Assembly (NCBI GenBank): GCA_001657575.1
Contig: LBCX01000006.1
Location: forward strand, 1-38,268
Direction: 5' to 3'
DNA length: 38,268 nucleotides
Origin: Bacteroidales bacterium Barb4
Lineage (GTDB): Bacteria > Bacteroidota > Bacteroidia > Bacteroidales > Tannerellaceae
Under the pieces are notes generated by a model. It was given only the letters and a program-made list of their open reading frames with translations, had not been told where the DNA came from and ran no database searches. Shown one piece after another: positions 1 through 25,347 of the stretch. The position numbers were made by a program, and so were the translations under genes. Each line of letters opens with the position of its first letter. Positions within the stretch are counted from its first letter, which is position 1.

Positions 1-1302
1 GGCGCCATGTATGCAGCACTCGGATTGCACGGGTGCCTGCCTCACAGTCACGGTTCGCAGGGTTGCTGCTCCTATCACCGAAGTGCCCTCACGCGCCACT
101 TCAAGGAACCCGTTATGGCGGCTACGAGTTCCTTTTCCGAAGGCTCCTCCGTATTCGGCGGTTCGGCTAACTTGGTAACCGCCATCGAAACGATCTTCAC
201 GGTATATAATCCGGATGTAGTGGCTGTTCACACCACCTGCCTCTCCGAAACAATCGGTGACGACTTGACGCAAATCGTTTCCAAAGCCCACGAAGACGGA
301 CTTGTACCCGAAGGGAAGAAAGTTATTTACTGCAACACGCCCAGTTACGTGGGAACACATGTAACCGGCTATTCCAATCAGGTGGCGGCTTTCGTTAAAT
401 TCTTCTCTACGGCAACTCCGAAGAAGAAAAACGTTGTCAATTTGGTAGCCGGCTGGATGGAGCCTTCGGATATGCGCGAAATCAAACGCCTTGCACAGGA
501 GATGGAAGCCCGTATTATCCTGTTCCCCGATATGTCGGGCGTATTGGATGCCCCCCTAACGGGAAAGTTTGAGATGTATCCCAAAGGGGGTACTACGCAA
601 GCGCAGTTAATCGCTACCGGCGACAGTAAATTTACGATAGGTTTAGGTGCCTATACGACCGAAGATGCCTGTGTGAAATTGGAAAACAAGTGCAAGGTAA
701 AGTTTGAAGTAGTCGAAATCCCCATCGGACTGAAAGCGACCGACCGGTTCATCACTTCTTTAAGCCGCCATGCCAATGTGCCTGTGCCCGACAGTATCAC
801 CGAAGAGCGCGGACGTTTGGTGGACTTGATTGCCGACAACTCAAAGTATTTCTACGGCAAAAGAGTGGCTCTGTTTGGCGACCCCGATACGCTGATTCCC
901 TTGACGGAGTTTTTACTCACTTTGGATATGAAGCCCGTGTATATCGTTACCGGTACGCCCGGCAAGCATTTCGACGAATCCATGCAAACGCTTTTATCGG
1001 AAAAGGTGCCCGAAGCGAAATACAAGAGCGGGCCCAATGCCGATATGTTCCAGCTTCATCAATGGATTAAGCAGGAGTCGGTAGATTTGCTGATAGGTAA
1101 TACGTATGGCAAGTATATTGCCCGTGATGAGAACATTCCCTTTGTTCGTATGGGATTTCCTATTGTGGACAGAGCAGGGCACAACTACTTTCCGAATACA
1201 GGTTATGTAGGAGCGACCAATCTTGTCATTAAGATATTGGAAAAGGAATTAGACCACCTCGACCGCAATTGCCCGGACGAAAAGGTAGAATGGCAGTTGT
1301 AG
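1..1302 (+). CDS. nifK: Nitrogenase MoFe protein beta chain NifK (5' partial)
   Basis: Beta subunit of dinitrogenase; with NifD it forms the alpha2beta2 MoFe protein carrying P-clusters and FeMo-co. The reading frame is open from base 1, so the gene begins outside the window; the Met at base 7 is internal, as the preceding Gly-Ala matches the usual GAM context. Visible P-cluster ligands: Cys in HGSQGC (second ligand, Cys95 of Azotobacter), Cys in TTCLSETIGDD (codon 238-240, Cys153) and Ser in NTPSY (codon 343-345, Ser188); the first ligand cysteine would lie just upstream and is not seen. The C-terminus ends normally after the GYVGATN region. The compact form without long extensions fits NifK of anaerobes rather than the proteobacterial type. 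nifE follows after 21 bp, so they are surely cotranscribed. Only the missing N-terminus is uncertain. Confidence 0.97.
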   Translation, partial: GAMYAALGLHGCLPHSHGSQGCCSYHRSALTRHFKEPVMAATSSFSEGSSVFGGSANLVTAIETIFTVYNPDVVAVHTTCLSETIGDDLTQIVSKAHEDGLVPEGKKVIYCNTPSYVGTHVTGYSNQVAAFVKFFSTATPKKKNVVNLVAGWMEPSDMREIKRLAQEMEARIILFPDMSGVLDAPLTGKFEMYPKGGTTQAQLIATGDSKFTIGLGAYTTEDACVKLENKCKVKFEVVEIPIGLKATDRFITSLSRHANVPVPDSITEERGRLVDLIADNSKYFYGKRVALFGDPDTLIPLTEFLLTLDMKPVYIVTGTPGKHFDESMQTLLSEKVPEAKYKSGPNADMFQLHQWIKQESVDLLIGNTYGKYIARDENIPFVRMGFPIVDRAGHNYFPNTGYVGATNLVIKILEKELDHLDRNCPDEKVEWQL

Positions 1303-1323
1303 AATATCCATAAGACCCATGCA

Positions 1324-2652
1324 ATGACAGGCTTTTTACAGGATAGAAAATCACAGATAATCACCAAGGGCAAAGGCAACTTTGATTTGATTGGCGGAAA
1401 ACCCAGTATTGCGGGTTCCGTCAGTCAGCGTGCCTGTGTCTTTTGCGGCTCTCGTGTCGTCTTGTATCCCATAGCCGATGCCATACATTTGGTGCATGGG
1501 CCTATTGGATGTGCTTCTTATACATGGGATATTCGGGGAGCCATGTCATCGGGACCCGAATTGCACCGCAACAGTTTCTCAACCGATTTGCGCGAGAAAC
1601 ACGTAGTCTTTGGCGGAGAAAAGAAACTCTATGCCGCCTTAGTTGAACTCATCGACAAGTACCAACCCAAAGCGGCTTTTGTGTATTCCACCTGCATCGT
1701 AGGCGTGATAGGTGACGATGTGCAATCGGTGTGTCGGCAAGTAGAAAAACTAAAACACATTCCCGTTATCCCCGTCATGGCGGAAGGCTTTCAAGGCACC
1801 AAGAAAGACGGCTACAAAATTGCCTGCGATGCAATGGCTACTTTGGTTGGCACCGATGAGAGTAAAGTGATTTCTCCAATAAGCATCAATATTTTGGGCG
1901 ATTTCAACTTAGCCGGCGAACTGTGGATATTAGCGGATTATTATAAAAAGATTGGGGTAGAAATAGCAGCCTCTATTACGGGCGACGGGCGGGTGAATGA
2001 TATTCAAAATGCCCATCGGGCAGCTTTGAACGTGGTACAATGTTCCGGCTCCATGCTCCATCTCGCCAAAACGATGAAAGAGCAATACGGTATTCCTTTC
2101 AGGAAGGTTTCGTATTTCGGCATAGAAGATATGTCGGATGCTTTGTATGAGGTGGCAAAATTCTTTGGAAAGGAGGAACTGATGGACAATGCTCGCGACT
2201 TGGTCAAAGAGGAGCTGAAAACCCTGCTTCCTGCTTTGGAGCCTTATCGTAATGCTTTGCAGGGCAAGAAGGCTGCTATCTATGTGGGCGGTGCTTTCAA
2301 AGCCATCTCTTTGGTGAAGGCATTGCGACTGATAGGTGTGCAAACTGTCATTGCCGGTACACAGACAGGCGATACGGAAGATTACAAACTGCTGAAAACT
2401 ATCTGTGACGACGGTTGTATCTTGGTGGACGATTCCAATCCGGTGGAATTGTCGGAGTTTGTGAAACAAACCGGAGCAGACCTGTTTATTGGCGGCGTAA
2501 AAGAACGCCCGATTGCTTATAAATTAGGTATCGGCTTTTGCGACCACAACCACGAACGCAAATTGGCTTTAGCCGGTTATGAGGGAATGCTCAACTTTGC
2601 CAAGGAAGTCTATGAAACGGTATGTAGCCCTGTATGGAGGTTTGCCTTATGA
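1324..2652 (+). CDS. nifE: FeMo-cofactor assembly scaffold NifE
   Basis: NifE pairs with NifN to form the NifEN scaffold on which the NifB product is matured to FeMo-co before transfer to NifDK. The 442-residue length is normal. Cluster-ligand regions are visible: RACVFCGSR (Cys38, Cys41), HGPIGC (Cys63), STCIVGVIGDD, and VQCSGSM in the middle of the protein, corresponding to the Cys250 region of Azotobacter NifE. The C-terminal KERPIAYKLGIGFCDHN segment is typical of NifE and differs from NifD, which keeps a FeMo-co-binding His. The gene starts 21 bp after nifK and its stop overlaps the start of nifN (ATGA), which suggests translational coupling. Confidence 0.96.
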   Translation: MTGFLQDRKSQIITKGKGNFDLIGGKPSIAGSVSQRACVFCGSRVVLYPIADAIHLVHGPIGCASYTWDIRGAMSSGPELHRNSFSTDLREKHVVFGGEKKLYAALVELIDKYQPKAAFVYSTCIVGVIGDDVQSVCRQVEKLKHIPVIPVMAEGFQGTKKDGYKIACDAMATLVGTDESKVISPISINILGDFNLAGELWILADYYKKIGVEIAASITGDGRVNDIQNAHRAALNVVQCSGSMLHLAKTMKEQYGIPFRKVSYFGIEDMSDALYEVAKFFGKEELMDNARDLVKEELKTLLPALEPYRNALQGKKAAIYVGGAFKAISLVKALRLIGVQTVIAGTQTGDTEDYKLLKTICDDGCILVDDSNPVELSEFVKQTGADLFIGGVKERPIAYKLGIGFCDHNHERKLALAGYEGMLNFAKEVYETVCSPVWRFAL

Positions 2653-4025
2653 ATGAAATGAAAGAAGCGGCATCTTCCTGCAATGCGTGCAAACAATGCG
2701 CTCCCTTGGGTGCCTGTATTGCTTTCAAAGGGATTGAAGGTGCTTTGCCGATGCTGCATGGCTCGCAAGGCTGTGCTACGTATATCCGCCGTTACCTGAT
2801 TAGCCATTTCCGGGAAACAATGGATATTGCTTCTTCCAATTTCAGCGAAGAGACCACTATCTTCGGCGGCAACAGGAATTTTAATACGGGTATAGACAAT
2901 ATCATCAGTCAATACCATCCGCAGGTCATTGCTATTGCCAGCACTTGCTTGGCTGAAACAATAGGCGAAGATGTACAGCGATTGATTTATGAATATCAGG
3001 CTACGCATGAAGAGGTGCCTGAAATGGTTTTCGCTTCTACCCCCAGCTATCAGGGTACGCATTACGAAGGCTTTCACGAAGCTGTGTTTGCCACCGTAAA
3101 AACCTTAGCCAAAGGAAAAGCATCGGACAATCCCCTTTCTCTCCACCAGCTAAACCTGTTCTGCAACCTGATTTCACCCGAAGACATTCGTCATTTGAAA
3201 GAGATAGCTGCCGATTTTTCATTAAAGACAATGATATTCCCCGATTATTCGGATACGCTCGACGGCACTTCATGGGACAGTTACCAACGCATTCCCGAAG
3301 GGGGAACGACTATTGAAGCCATCGAAAACAGTCCTTGGGCTGCCTCCTCTCTCGAATTAGGTTATATCTTGAATGCCACCCTGACACAATCAGCCGGCGA
3401 ATATCTGCAAAATGCTTTTGGCGTAGATAACTTCAGAACCGGACTGCCGATTGGCATCCGGGAATCGGATAAGTTTTTCGCTCAGTTATCTGCTCTTTCG
3501 GGTAAAGTAATTCCCCTGAAATACCAGAAGCAACGGGGGCGATTAGTCGATTTGTATTTCGACGGGCACAAGTATGTTTCCATGAAAAGGGCAGTTATCT
3601 ATGGCGAAGAAGATTTAGTCGTAGGCTTGGCGGCTTTTGCGGCTGAAACAGGCATCAAACCGGTTTTATGCGCAACAGGCGGTGAAAGCGGAACACTTCA
3701 ACAGACATTGCGAGAAGTGCTCGGCGACTTATATTCAGAAGAAATAATCGTAGGTCAGGGAATGACTTTTGAGGCTATGGAGGCTGCCATTCACGACTTG
3801 GACTTGCAGCCCGATTTATTTATCGGCAACAGTAAAGGCTATTACCTTGCCCGCAAACTGGATATTCCGATTGTTCGCGCCGGCTTTCCCATTCACGACA
3901 GGATTGGAGCGCAACACAATCGCCTGCTGGGATACGAAGGCACCACCATACTTTTTGAGCAAATAGTAAATACCTTGTTAGAAGATAAACAACGCAAATC
4001 ATCCGTAGGATATAAATACATGTAA
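2649..4025 (+). CDS. nifN: FeMo-cofactor assembly scaffold NifN
   Basis: Second subunit of the NifEN scaffold, a NifK paralogue. Start chosen at 2649 rather than the in-frame ATG at 2634: this ATG overlaps the nifE stop as ATGA and a GGAGG ribosome-binding site sits at 2636-2640, 8 bases upstream. The N-terminus has a cysteine-rich CNACKQC followed by GAC, then HGSQGC and STCLAETIGED, the cluster-binding pattern of NifN/NifK. The product of 458 residues is in the family range. NifN assignment rests on position after nifE and before nifB and on lower similarity to NifK. Its stop overlaps the nifB start by one base. Confidence 0.94.
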   Translation: MNEMKEAASSCNACKQCAPLGACIAFKGIEGALPMLHGSQGCATYIRRYLISHFRETMDIASSNFSEETTIFGGNRNFNTGIDNIISQYHPQVIAIASTCLAETIGEDVQRLIYEYQATHEEVPEMVFASTPSYQGTHYEGFHEAVFATVKTLAKGKASDNPLSLHQLNLFCNLISPEDIRHLKEIAADFSLKTMIFPDYSDTLDGTSWDSYQRIPEGGTTIEAIENSPWAASSLELGYILNATLTQSAGEYLQNAFGVDNFRTGLPIGIRESDKFFAQLSALSGKVIPLKYQKQRGRLVDLYFDGHKYVSMKRAVIYGEEDLVVGLAAFAAETGIKPVLCATGGESGTLQQTLREVLGDLYSEEIIVGQGMTFEAMEAAIHDLDLQPDLFIGNSKGYYLARKLDIPIVRAGFPIHDRIGAQHNRLLGYEGTTILFEQIVNTLLEDKQRKSSVGYKYM

Positions 4026-5290
4026 TGATGAAAGATATTTCCAAACATCCCTGTTTTAATGCAGAGGCAAAACACCAATATGCCCGCGTGCATTTGCCGG
4101 TAGCACCGAAGTGTAATATCCAGTGCAATTATTGCAACCGCAAATACGATTGCAGCAACGAAAGCCGTCCGGGTGTAACAAGTACTGTATTGTCGCCCAT
4201 GCAGTCGGTGCATTATCTGAAAGCACTGACGGAAAAGATTCCGAACATCAGTGTGATTGGGATAGCAGGCCCGGGCGACCCCTTCGCCAATCCCGAAGAA
4301 ACGCTCAATACAATGAAGATGGTGAAGCAGGCTTTCCCCGATAAAATCTTCTGCTTATCGACCAATGGTTTGGATTTGGCTCCCTATATTGATGAGTTGG
4401 CAGAGATAGGCGTGTCGCACGTCACGATTACCATCAACTCACTGCGACCCGAAACCTTGGCAAATATGTATCGCTGGGTGCGCTTCAACCGTCGTGTCTA
4501 TCGGGGCGAAGCGGCAGGAAAAGTATTGCTCGAACAGCAACTTGGCAACATCGTCAAGCTCAAGGAAAAAGGCATCACAGTGAAGATCAATACAGTGGTT
4601 TGCCCGGGCATCAATGACGATGAAGTAGAAGAGGTCGCACAAAAAGTAGCTTCCTTGGGAGCAGACACGATGAACTGTATCCCCTTGTATCCGACGGAGA
4701 ACACCGAGTTTGCCCTCCTGCCCGAACCGTCGAAACCGATGATGAAAGGCATTAAAGCCGCTATCTCCAAACACATCCAGCCGATGGCGCATTGCGCCCG
4801 TTGCCGTGCCGATGCTGCCGGTTTATTGGGTCACGACAATACGGTAGCAATGGACATGATAGGGCAATTCTCTACCATGACAGTAAATAGAAGCGAAGGT
4901 CGCACGCGGGTAGCCGTAGCGAGCAACGAAGGCTTGTTAGTCAATCTTCACTTGGGCGAAGCCCGCAAGGTGTATGTGTTTGAAAAATCATTGAACGGTT
5001 ATCACTTCGTGGAAATCCGAAACACCCCGCCCGAAGGCAGAGGCATGGCACGCTGGGAAGAGTTGGCTGCAAAGACTTTGGGCGATTGTCAGGCAATCTT
5101 GGTGGCAGGTATTGGCGAAACACCGATGAAAGTGATGCAGCAAAACGGCATCAGGGTCATACAAATGAGCGGTTTGATAGATGCAGGTTTGGATGCGGTC
5201 TATCTCAACCTGCCCGTCAAAACCCTTTGCCGGAGTGACTATACAAAGTGCGGCGAGAGTTGCCGCGACGCAGGCAATGGCTGCGGATGA
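4025..5290 (+). CDS. nifB: FeMo-cofactor biosynthesis protein NifB (radical SAM plus NifX-like domain)
   Basis: NifB fuses two [4Fe-4S] clusters and inserts the interstitial carbide to make NifB-co, the first committed FeMo-co precursor. The N-terminal half is a radical SAM domain: HPCF with Cys10, then CNIQCNYC (Cys30, Cys34, Cys37; CX3CX2C) and the NifB-typical NRKYDCSNESRPGV. The CARCRADAAG motif near residue 260 supplies additional cluster ligands. From about residue 290 a NifX/NafY-like domain follows (RVAVASNEG, AILVAGIGETP), so this is the two-domain form. The tail is unusually cysteine-rich (LCRSDYTKCGESC and a final NGCG). Overlaps nifN by one base; an alternative Met is one codon downstream. 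Confidence 0.96.
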   Translation: MMKDISKHPCFNAEAKHQYARVHLPVAPKCNIQCNYCNRKYDCSNESRPGVTSTVLSPMQSVHYLKALTEKIPNISVIGIAGPGDPFANPEETLNTMKMVKQAFPDKIFCLSTNGLDLAPYIDELAEIGVSHVTITINSLRPETLANMYRWVRFNRRVYRGEAAGKVLLEQQLGNIVKLKEKGITVKINTVVCPGINDDEVEEVAQKVASLGADTMNCIPLYPTENTEFALLPEPSKPMMKGIKAAISKHIQPMAHCARCRADAAGLLGHDNTVAMDMIGQFSTMTVNRSEGRTRVAVASNEGLLVNLHLGEARKVYVFEKSLNGYHFVEIRNTPPEGRGMARWEELAAKTLGDCQAILVAGIGETPMKVMQQNGIRVIQMSGLIDAGLDAVYLNLPVKTLCRSDYTKCGESCRDAGNGCG

Positions 5291-12134: not shown

Positions 12135-13148
12135 ATGGAAGAAGCATTGAAATATCAGGCGCAGGATTACAAGAGCGACCAGCATGTACGCTGGTGTCCG
12201 GGGTGCGGCGACCATGCCGTGTTGAATTGCATACACAAGGCGATGGCGGAATTGGGCACGGCTCCGCACAATGTAGCCGTTATCTCCGGCATCGGCTGTT
12301 CCTCCCGCCTGCCTTATTATATGAATTCGTATGGTTTCCATACGATACACGGACGTGCGGCAGCCATTGCGACAGGGGTGAAAACTGCCCGTCCCGATTT
12401 GAGCGTATGGGTGGTGACGGGCGACGGCGACTGTCTCGCCATCGGTGGCAATCATTTTATCCATGCCGTGCGGCGAAATGTAAATCTCAACATTGCCTTG
12501 TTCAACAACAAGATATACGGATTGACCAAGGGGCAGTATTCCCCTACGTCCGAGCGCGGGTTTGTTTCCAAAAGCTCGCCTTTCGGGACGGTGGAAGAGC
12601 CGTTTATTCCTGCCGAGCTAGCGTTGGGTGCTCGCGGCAACTTCTTTGCACGGACGATTGACGTGGATTTGAAGAATACGACGGAGGTATTCGCCGAAGC
12701 TGCCCGCCATAAAGGGGCATCGGTAGTGGAAGTATTGGTGAACTGTGTCATCTTCAATCACGGCATCCACAAGCACATCACTGACAAGGAATACCGCGCC
12801 GAACGTACTATCTTCCTGCGCCACGGCGAAAAGATGCTGTTTGGCAAGGACAACGAGAAAGGGCTTGTGCTGGACGGGCTGAAACTGAAAGCTGTCACTG
12901 TCGGCAAAGACGGCTATACGCTTGACGACATCCTCGTGCATGATGCACATGAAAAGGATATCGCCCTTCACCTGATGCTTTCCTTGATGAAGGATGACAT
13001 GCCGCTTGCGTTGGGTGTTATCCGCGAAGTGGAAGCTCCCTGCTATGATGAGGCTGTTGCCGGGCAGATTGCCGAGGTGCAGGCTAAGAATCCGGCACGG
13101 ACGCTGAAAGAAGTGCTGATGAAGGGGGAAGTGTGGGAGGTTAAGTGA
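12135..13148 (+). CDS. korB: 2-oxoacid:ferredoxin oxidoreductase, beta subunit (KorB)
   Basis: Thiamine-diphosphate-binding subunit that pairs with KorA. Visible: CPGCGDH near residue 22, IGCSSRLPYY, HGRAAAIATGVK, and the TPP motif GDGDCLAIGGNHFIHA ending in NN before KIYGLTKGQ. The 337-residue length is normal. A purine-rich AAAGGA lies just before the ATG, and the gap to korA is 5 bp, so they form one operon. Substrate specificity (2-oxoglutarate versus other 2-oxoacids) cannot be decided from sequence by eye; Kor is the usual annotation in Bacteroidales. Confidence 0.93.
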   Translation: MEEALKYQAQDYKSDQHVRWCPGCGDHAVLNCIHKAMAELGTAPHNVAVISGIGCSSRLPYYMNSYGFHTIHGRAAAIATGVKTARPDLSVWVVTGDGDCLAIGGNHFIHAVRRNVNLNIALFNNKIYGLTKGQYSPTSERGFVSKSSPFGTVEEPFIPAELALGARGNFFARTIDVDLKNTTEVFAEAARHKGASVVEVLVNCVIFNHGIHKHITDKEYRAERTIFLRHGEKMLFGKDNEKGLVLDGLKLKAVTVGKDGYTLDDILVHDAHEKDIALHLMLSLMKDDMPLALGVIREVEAPCYDEAVAGQIAEVQAKNPARTLKEVLMKGEVWEVK

Positions 13149-21741: not shown

Positions 21742-22370
21742 TCCCAGTTTCCTGCATTGTTGTTGATTTCGTCCAATGCACCGACACGCAAGCCGGGGTA
21801 TTTGCTTTGCTTTTGTGCTTTATCAATCAGGTTGTAACGCAGTTGAGGGTTCAGCCCGACCAGATAGTCTTCAAACTTCACACCGGCTTCAAACACCTTC
21901 ACTTCGTAGCCGGAGGTTGATGTGAGAGTCGCCGTATCCATCGCAAATTGAATATCACCCTCTACCTGCGGAACGAAACGGAACTTGGACACATCGTAAT
22001 CCTTGCCCAGCAACGTATCCTTTGCCAACACCCAGAACGTATCACGTTTGATAAAACCCTGCTTTACGGCTTCCTGCTCGGTCATGCCCTTTTCCAACTG
22101 TTCATCGGTCAATACACCTTCCTTCATAATAAATGGAATCTTATGCTCGGTCAGGAACTTTTCCAAATCATCGAAAGTGCCTGCATGTGTCTTATGTACA
22201 TTCTTGTATTCAAGCTGGACTTTGCGGATTTCCACCAGACGTTCGATAATGGCATCGTCACGCAGTTTCTTTTCCGAATCAAAATTGATAGGTACCAGAA
22301 TACTGCTGATACACATGTAAGCAAGTACCGCAACGGCTGCAACAAGCAAGATGTTTAATACAATTTTCAT
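21738..22370 (-). CDS. Single-pass membrane protein of unknown function
   Basis: A 210-residue protein beginning with an N-terminal hydrophobic helix (MKIVLNILLVAAVAVLAYMC) that can act as signal anchor, followed by a charged, helix-rich extracytoplasmic region (RLVEIRKVQLEYKNVHKTHA), which resembles the pilin-like layout without a clear prepilin site. Start set at 22370; an in-frame Met at 22412 would place 14 charged residues before the helix and overlap the promoter box. Same operon as the DUF3822-like and rsmD genes (4-bp overlap). Confidence 0.8.
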   Translation of the reverse strand: MKIVLNILLVAAVAVLAYMCISSILVPINFDSEKKLRDDAIIERLVEIRKVQLEYKNVHKTHAGTFDDLEKFLTEHKIPFIMKEGVLTDEQLEKGMTEQEAVKQGFIKRDTFWVLAKDTLLGKDYDVSKFRFVPQVEGDIQFAMDTATLTSTSGYEVKVFEAGVKFEDYLVGLNPQLRYNLIDKAQKQSKYPGLRVGALDEINNNAGNWE

Positions 22371-22495: not shown

Positions 22496-22717
22496 TTATC
22501 TCTTGACCCCAATCACATAGCCTATCTTTACTGCAAAAAAATTGTTGTAGTGTCCTTGATAACGGTATTCTCCTGTAAGCCTGACTTTATTGAAAAACTC
22601 AACGCCTATGCGGGGAGAAGCTATTAAATGCGAAACAGTTTTATGGGGAATTTCCCTGTCTTCTTTTGCAGGACTATGGTTTATTATACGGCTTCCTTTC
22701 TTCTTGAATTGGCATTG
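22496..22717 (-). pseudogene. C-terminal remnant of a beta-barrel-like outer-membrane protein
   Basis: A 73-codon leftward open stretch without a start codon context. Its end alternates aromatic and polar residues like the last strands of a barrel: SPRIGVEFFNKVRLTGEYRY, QGHYNNFFAVKIGYVIGVKR then stop. Upstream it is cut by an in-frame stop at 22718-22720 and no matching barrel sequence is seen beyond. It lies in a 1-kb gap (22371-23376) that otherwise has no supported gene; rightward and leftward ORFs between 22720 and 23100 look random. Confidence 0.45.
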
Positions 22718-23231
22718 CTAATTAAGAATGCTTACCTGTATTTGCAGGAAAAAAGAGTATGAATTGTTCCAAATGCAGCAACGGTTCCCTGATTTTGTCA
22801 TCGGGGACAGAAGCGGTCAAACAGCCGGAAAGTTTAGGAACAAAATAAAGCATCACGGCATGAACAGGATTGCAGGCAATTACCGGAAACCTTACGGGAG
22901 CATCATACCTCAAGAAAAGCATCTGCAAACCAAAGCGGAAATCTTCACGGCAGAAGGATACAACAGTTTGTTCAGGCACTTTTTGGCAGGAACAAGAAGA
23001 AAGTCCAAATGCTGTTCCAAGAAAGCAGAGATGTTGGAAATATCTGTTTTACTATTAATGCATTATCGAAATGGCACGCTAAATGTCCTTCATTAGCAAT
23101 GCCTTAAATTTATTGCTTTAATCCTGCAATATTACTGCTTTTTCACATGGGGCAAATCTAAGGTGCAGGACTTCTGTACAACATCAGAAACATGATATTA
23201 TTTTGTTTCTATCAATTTTTATCACGCACCT

Positions 23232-23263
23232 ACTGTTTTTGGCACGTATTTTGTAATTGTAAC
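23232..23263 (+). promoter_or_regulatory. Sigma54-like promoter 1 upstream of groES
   Basis: The 32-bp segment contains TTTTTGGCACGTATTTTGTA: a -24 TGGCACG and, 10 bases after the GG (23241-23242), a GT at 23253-23254 in place of the usual GC at -12. It is repeated exactly at 23297-23328, 65 bp downstream. The primary-sigma TAnnTTTG pattern is not met. Confidence 0.55.
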
Positions 23264-23296
23264 TACTCCGTACTTATACGTTTCCCCTTGCCAACG

Positions 23297-23328
23297 ACTG
23301 TTTTTGGCACGTATTTTGTAATTGTAAC
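23297..23328 (+). promoter_or_regulatory. Sigma54-like promoter 2 upstream of groES
   Basis: Second, identical 32-bp copy of the segment at 23232-23263; GG at 23306-23307 and GT at 23318-23319. Expected transcript start is about 47 bases before the groES ATG. Confidence 0.6.
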
Positions 23329-23376: not shown

Positions 23377-23646
23377 ATGAACATGAAACCATTAGCAGAC
23401 AGAGTGCTTATCAAGCCGGCTGCAGCAGAAGAAAAAACAGTGGGTGGGATTATTATCCCCGATTCAGCCAAAGAAAAGCCGCTGAAAGGTGAAGTAGTTT
23501 CCGCAGGAAACGGAACAAAAGATGAAGAGATGGTCGTAAAGCCGGGTGACAAGGTATTATATGGCAAGTATGCCGGTACCGAAATCGAATTTGAGGGCGA
23601 ACAGTTCCTCATCATGCGCCAATCTGACATTTTGGCAATCATTTGA
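23377..23646 (+). CDS. groES: Co-chaperonin GroES
   Basis: The 10-kDa lid of the GroEL folding chamber. 89 residues; [27 protein letters not shown] is split as the conserved first strand ([10 protein letters not shown]) and the mobile loop ([17 protein letters not shown]), with [14 protein letters not shown] and DILAII at the end. The start Met precedes a second Met two codons on; the longer start fits the family. groEL follows after 63 bp on the same strand. Confidence 0.97.

Positions 23647-23697: not shown

Positions 23698-25347
<1,650 letters not shown>

What the first reader, a model, noticed from the sequence alone, without database searches (positions are those of the whole stretch)
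23232..23328. Two identical sigma54-like promoters in tandem upstream of groESL
A 32-bp segment is repeated exactly 65 bp apart; each has TGGCACG and a TTGT spaced as -24/-12 elements (GG-N10-GT). The primary-sigma -7 box is absent, and chaperonin genes are seldom described as RpoN-driven in this phylum. Exact duplication limited to the promoter suggests selection for dosage or recent copying. GroEL is known to be needed for nitrogenase assembly in some diazotrophs, which would make RpoN control meaningful.
Basis: partly seen in the sequence, partly recalled or inferred. Interest (0 to 1): 0.62.

Follow-up and report, generated by a model that had tools for sequence, protein, structure and literature searches.

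The report
Doubled sigma-54 promoter of chaperonin genes
Two copies of the same RpoN (sigma-54) switch sit in front of the groESL chaperonin genes of an uncultured, predicted nitrogen-fixing Bacteroidales bacterium; RpoN control of these genes is normal for this phylum and already reported, but the doubling, and the loss of the usual neighbouring activator sites, are rare local changes.

Summary
The repeat is real: 32 identical bases (37/40 over the longer match), start-to-start 65 bp, each copy with TGGCACG-N4-TTGT (GG-N10-GT), 137 and 72 bp upstream of the groES start. Both are good sigma-54 promoters, and the genome has an intact RpoN. A single sigma-54 promoter at the proximal position is the rule in Bacteroidales (95 of 106 distinct groES upstream regions), and RpoN-type groESL promoters are already published for Flavobacterium psychrophilum and Bacteroides thetaiotaomicron, so 'seldom RpoN-driven in this phylum' is wrong. 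The likely activator is not NifA but a conserved enhancer-binding protein encoded next to groESL (EBP-lptE-TPR-secG-groES-groEL) in distant relatives. Relatives carry its probable sites, TGNCANNNTGKCAG, in 10.5-bp helical steps upstream of the promoter; the window has none there. The genome is a predicted diazotroph (nif and anf), but the probable NifA site (TACA-N4-TGTA, upstream of nifH and anfH) is absent at groESL. Tandem pairs matching the searched consensus occur in only 2 of about 124 family genomes, both at groESL and apparently independent; the second lacks nifD. Verdict: a known kind of promoter with a rare, lineage-specific duplication of unknown effect.

The parts
23232..23263 (+). 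distal copy of the 32-bp repeat; sigma-54 core TGGCACGTATTTTGT at 23240-23254, predicted transcript start about 23266
   Evidence: start inferred from -24/-12 geometry
23297..23328 (+). proximal copy of the repeat; sigma-54 core at 23305-23319, predicted transcript start about 23331; sits where relatives have their single groES promoter
23377..23646 (+). groES (89 aa), the only groES found in the genome
   Evidence: sequence
23710..25347 (+). groEL (545 aa)
   Evidence: TIGR02348
23104..23231 (+). region upstream of the distal promoter, where relatives carry TGNCANNNTGKCAG activator sites; none recognisable here
23624..23638 (-). match to the relatives' activator-site consensus inside the 3' end of groES (highest score in the window); probably coincidence from codon use
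22711..23103 (+). decayed IS1-family element: terminal inverted repeats GGCATTGCTAATTAAG / CTTCATTAGCAATGCC and a transposase C-terminal remnant
   Evidence: I1; NF033558, 38.9 bits, below the family cut-off

Best explanation
The two repeats are sigma-54 (RpoN) promoters of groESL. RNA polymerase with RpoN binds GG-N10-GT as a closed complex and is opened by an AAA+ enhancer-binding protein, most likely the conserved EBP of contig C513 (AAA+ and Fis-type HTH, no N-terminal sensor), as part of the phylum's RpoN-driven chaperone regulon (groESL, dnaK, htpG). The proximal copy is the ancestral promoter; the distal copy is a local duplication that adds a second start or polymerase-loading site, and whether it raises output is unknown. 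Shown here: sequence, conservation, genome content, synteny. Inferred: RpoN binding, activator identity, expression under stress, effect of the second copy.
For: Consensus-perfect pair, 23.3 bits each, against a median of 24.6 for the best site in relatives. 95 of 106 distinct Bacteroidales groES upstream regions carry the motif, mostly at -60 to -110. The same strict motif occurs upstream of dnaK, and a related one upstream of htpG, in this genome. Intact RpoN with RpoN box. Only two strong EBPs in the genome: this one and a NifA-like one. The EBP is found in the relatives searched, 73-80% identical in full-length family matches, and its operon EBP-lptE-TPR-secG runs into groES-groEL in three order-level relatives (adjacency of coordinates in three more). 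Relatives' groES promoters have 172 activator half-sites against about 10 in shuffles, in 88 of 95 regions, phased at about 10.5 bp. Published start-site data for F. psychrophilum.
Against: No transcript data for this organism. The activator sites that almost all relatives have are missing here (best score 0.1 against a 5th percentile of 9.45), so activation by the same EBP from the same place is not shown. The -12 element is TTTTGT where most relatives have TTCGC; GT in place of GC occurs in 35 of 95 relatives' sites. The genome is a fragmented assembly (553 contigs, 95% complete), so a further EBP could be missing.
Confidence: 0.75

Rival explanations
1. Only the proximal promoter works; the distal copy is a recent neutral duplication with no effect on expression.
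For: The proximal copy is at the usual distance from groES. Tandem pairs of the searched consensus are almost absent elsewhere: one other in the family, none in 392 further order members at gaps of 5-35.
Against: The 32 identical bases coincide with the promoter while flanks have diverged, which is easier to explain if both copies are constrained; a second groES promoter duplication arose in another genus.
Confidence: 0.35
2. NifA control: the NifA-like EBP (C415, beside a nifV-like gene) drives groESL from these promoters so that chaperonin rises with nitrogenase.
For: The genome has nifHDKENB and anfHD, and a GAF-AAA+-HTH NifA-like protein. The usual activator sites are missing at groESL. 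It was the only one of 28 family genomes above the nifD cut-off. nifH has a sigma-54 promoter TGGCACCGTGTTTGCA.
Against: TACA-N4-TGTA, found once upstream of nifH and three times upstream of anfH, has no match near groES; the nearest exact one is at 22197, inside another reading frame. No TGT-N10-ACA within 800 bp upstream. The groES sigma-54 promoter exists in relatives without nifD, and the other tandem-promoter genome lacks nifD.
Confidence: 0.07
3. The repeats are operators for a DNA-binding regulator and groESL is transcribed by the primary sigma factor.
For: Two exact direct repeats upstream of a stress operon could be operator sites; a loose TATTTG lies at about 23345 (sequence).
Against: The repeats coincide with a -24/-12 promoter conserved in position across the order and mapped in F. 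psychrophilum; no consensus primary promoter is present.
Confidence: 0.05

Closest known systems
Sigma-54 (motif SM4) promoters of groESL, dnaK, grpE-dnaJ, htpG, lon and clpB in Flavobacterium psychrophilum (PMC9723704)
   Same: Same sigma factor class, same gene, -24/-12 motif; same chaperone set (dnaK and htpG sites found here too).
   Different: A single promoter is listed there; start sites mapped there, not here; that paper does not assign an activator in the passages read.
Sigma-54-dependent groES/grpE of Bacteroides thetaiotaomicron and the chaperone enrichment of predicted sigma-54 promoters in Bacteroidota (PMC12316311)
   Same: Same class Bacteroidia, same gene and promoter type.
   Different: No tandem promoter mentioned in the passages read; the window has a diverged -12 element and lacks the activator sites found in relatives.
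NifA/sigma-54-controlled groESL3 of Bradyrhizobium (from memory)
   Same: groESL under sigma-54 in a diazotroph.
   Different: There NifA is the activator; here the NifA-type site is absent and the promoter is shared with relatives that lack nifD.
PspF/psp sigma-54 stress system of Escherichia coli (from memory)
   Same: An EBP with AAA+ and Fis-type HTH and no N-terminal sensor domain controlling a stress operon through sigma-54.
   Different: Chaperonins rather than psp genes; the EBP scores 265 bits on the PspF model, below its 443.55 cut-off, so it is not filed as PspF.

Membership tests
Sigma-54 (-24/-12) promoter | GG-N10-GC/GT with TGGCAC-type -24 element | tested here: met
   Both copies
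Sigma-54 (-24/-12) promoter | RpoN encoded in the genome, with RpoN box | tested here: met
   L001, TIGR02395 416.6 bits over its cut-off 277.35...RRTVAKYRE...
Sigma-54 (-24/-12) promoter | conserved position upstream of the orthologous gene in relatives | tested here: met
   95 of 106 regions
Sigma-54 (-24/-12) promoter | transcript start 12 bases after the -12 element, lost without RpoN | not testable with these tools
   no expression data for this organism
Sigma-54 promoter with upstream activator sites (as in Bacteroidales relatives) | TGNCANNNTGKCAG sites 10-110 bp upstream of the -24 element | tested here: not met
   No half-site upstream of either copy; best matrix score 0.1
Bacteroidota RpoN chaperone regulon | the same promoter type at several chaperone genes of one genome | tested here: met
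   groES twice, dnaK, htpG; grpE, clpB and lon not examined
NifA-controlled promoter | NifA activator site upstream (TGT-N10-ACA, or TACA-N4-TGTA as at nifH/anfH here) | tested here: not met
   the TACA-N4-TGTA site is itself an inference from four occurrences

The most novel reading that the evidence does not exclude
In this diazotroph lineage groESL control has been rewired: the helix-phased activator sites were lost and replaced by a second complete sigma-54 promoter (with activation from solution, from a diverged site, or from the activator-site match inside groES at 23624-23638), giving higher chaperonin output.
Probability: 0.15. Interest if true: 0.55.

Novelty: new variant of a known kind. 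Interest (0 to 1): 0.4.

Why it matters
Bacteroidota use RpoN for chaperone genes, and in the papers read the activator has not been named. The comparison made here points to one specific, directly testable regulator (the EBP encoded beside lptE, secG and groESL) and to its probable binding site and helical phasing. The window itself is a natural variant of that system in which the promoter is doubled and the sites are gone, useful for asking whether the sites are needed.

Tried and rejected
NifA control: no matching site near groES. Primary-sigma promoter: no consensus match upstream. First regular expressions (TTG at the -12 element) missed most relatives, because their -12 element is TTCGC; corrected. 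Synteny of the EBP with groESL in close relatives: not found within the roughly 1.5-2 kb flanks fetched (a search that returned no hits of any kind and so is weak evidence); it appeared only in order-level relatives. Activator site inside the groES 3' end: considered, but the same codon position scores 13-16 in several relatives too, so probably coincidence. Displacement of the activator sites by the IS1 remnant: unlikely, because it ends well over 100 bp upstream of the distal promoter. Assembly artefact: cannot be excluded without reads, but the two copies have different flanks.

Full report
What is there. The 32-bp direct repeat is exact and lies at 23232-23263 and 23297-23328, 65 bp apart; extended to 40 bp it is 37/40 identical, and the flanks diverge. 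Each copy holds TGGCACGTATTTTGT, i.e. GG-N10-GT. groES starts at 23377 and groEL at 23710 (sequence). The strict consensus TGGCACGNNNNTTGY has three matches in the 3.33-Mb genome: these two and one 83 bp upstream of dnaK. About three would be expected by chance in a genome of this size (own estimate), so what counts is that all three sit at promoter distance from chaperone genes. htpG has a weaker site, TTTGGCATTTATTTTGT, at -106.

Conservation. Of 106 distinct Bacteroidales groES upstream regions, 95 carry a TGG(C/T)A(C/T)-type -24 element with correctly spaced G(C/T) in the last 170 bp, most often TTTGGCAC-N4-TTCGC, mostly at -60 to -110 from the start codon. A weight matrix from these gives the two window copies 23.3 bits each; nothing else in the window passes 12. 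So the proximal copy (-72) is the ordinary groES promoter of the order and the distal copy (-137) is the addition. Two caveats: the matrix was trained on sites already selected by a pattern, and the relatives are not independent samples.

Literature. Sigma-54 promoters of groESL, dnaK, grpE-dnaJ, htpG, lon and clpB were mapped in F. psychrophilum (PMC9723704). A 2025 survey finds the chaperone genes enriched for sigma-54 promoters in Bacteroidota and states that groES and grpE of B. thetaiotaomicron are sigma-54 dependent (PMC12316311).

The likely activator. The genome has RpoN and two strong sigma-54 activators: a GAF-AAA+-HTH NifA-like protein beside a gene resembling nifV, and a protein of about 400 aa with AAA+ and Fis-type HTH but no N-terminal domain, followed by genes that look like lptE, a TPR protein and secG (names of these neighbours from sequence resemblance, not from a profile search). 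All 41 genomes searched gave matches to the second protein; full-length matches in the family are 73-80% identical, while a few incomplete genomes gave only partial or weaker ones. In three order-level relatives the order EBP-lptE-TPR-secG-groES-groEL was read directly (L176-L178), and in three more the coordinates of groES and the EBP are adjacent. In the window genome and in its close relative G013 the two are on different contigs. The HTH sequence ISERTLYRKIK is the same in the window genome and the relatives read. The inference that this EBP activates groESL rests on synteny, ubiquity and the small number of alternatives; it was not tested.

Activator sites. Upstream of the relatives' promoters, TGKCAG/CTGMCA half-sites are strongly enriched: 172 against a mean of 10 in dinucleotide shuffles, in 88 of 95 regions. 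The fuller form is about TGNCANNNTGKCAG. Their centres fall at about -16, -27, -38, -49, -60 and -70 from the promoter, a period of 10.5-10.75 bp (Rayleigh nR2 72-74 for 160 positions; shared ancestry inflates this). The window has no half-site upstream of either promoter, best score 0.1 against a 5th percentile of 9.45 in relatives. In this genome dnaK scores only 6.0 and htpG 9.4 (the latter downstream of its promoter), so the sites may have drifted at other chaperone genes too. The best match in the window lies inside the 3' end of groES (23624-23638), but the same codons score nearly as high in several relatives.

The nitrogenase idea. The window begins with nifK (probably cut by the contig end), nifE, nifN-like and nifB; nifH and nifD are on C66, and anfH and anfD on C415. 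nifH has a sigma-54 site TGGCACCGTGTTTGCA; nifH has one and anfH three TACA-N4-TGTA sites, which I take as the NifA site of this genome (inference). None lies near groES. The groES sigma-54 promoter is shared with relatives without nifD. NifA control of groESL is thus not supported.

How rare is the tandem. Two sigma-54 sites in tandem were sought with gaps of 30-60 bp in 124 family genomes (only the window matched), with gaps of 4-34 bp in 123 family genomes (only G006) and with gaps of 5-35 bp in 393 order genomes (none). The G006 pair is also at groES: a perfect 25-bp tandem duplication, together with a 21-bp duplication of its activator site. Different unit length, sequence and genus point to independent origin. 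That both fall at groES hints at selection for stronger groESL expression, but the pattern was built from groES promoters, which favours finding groES, and two cases are few. G006 lacks nifD.

Verdict. The duplication is a rare variant whose effect cannot be told from sequence.

Noticed in passing
window 7-5290: nifK (probably cut by the contig end), nifE, nifN-like and nifB open the window, about 18 kb from groESL; the rest of the genome adds nifH and nifD (C66) and Fe-only anfH and anfD (C415), so the organism is a predicted diazotroph with two nitrogenases.
   Followed up: partly
groES upstream regions of L005-L084 and L132-L160: Probable activator sites TGNCANNNTGKCAG upstream of Bacteroidales groES promoters, spaced in 10.5-bp helical steps; I found no description of this in the papers read.
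   Followed up: yes
L176, L177, L178: Gene order EBP-lptE-TPR-secG-groES-groEL in order-level relatives, linking one sigma-54 activator to the chaperonin operon.
   Followed up: yes
L152 (1826-1875 and 1929-1970, reversed strand): Second groES promoter duplication: perfect 25-bp tandem copy of the sigma-54 promoter and 21-bp tandem copy of the activator site.
   Followed up: yes
window 22711-23103: Decayed IS1-family element with recognisable terminal inverted repeats directly upstream of the groES promoter region; a fragment resembling its transposase also lies on the dnaK contig (L163).
   Followed up: partly
L169 about 12210-12500 and L170 about 3308-3700: TACA-N4-TGTA dyads upstream of anfH (three) and nifH (one), a candidate NifA-type site for this genome.
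   Followed up: partly
L171 8764-9636: A third NifH-family protein on C14 (331.7 bits) behind what look like SusC/SusD-type genes, apart from both nitrogenase clusters; role unknown.
   Followed up: no
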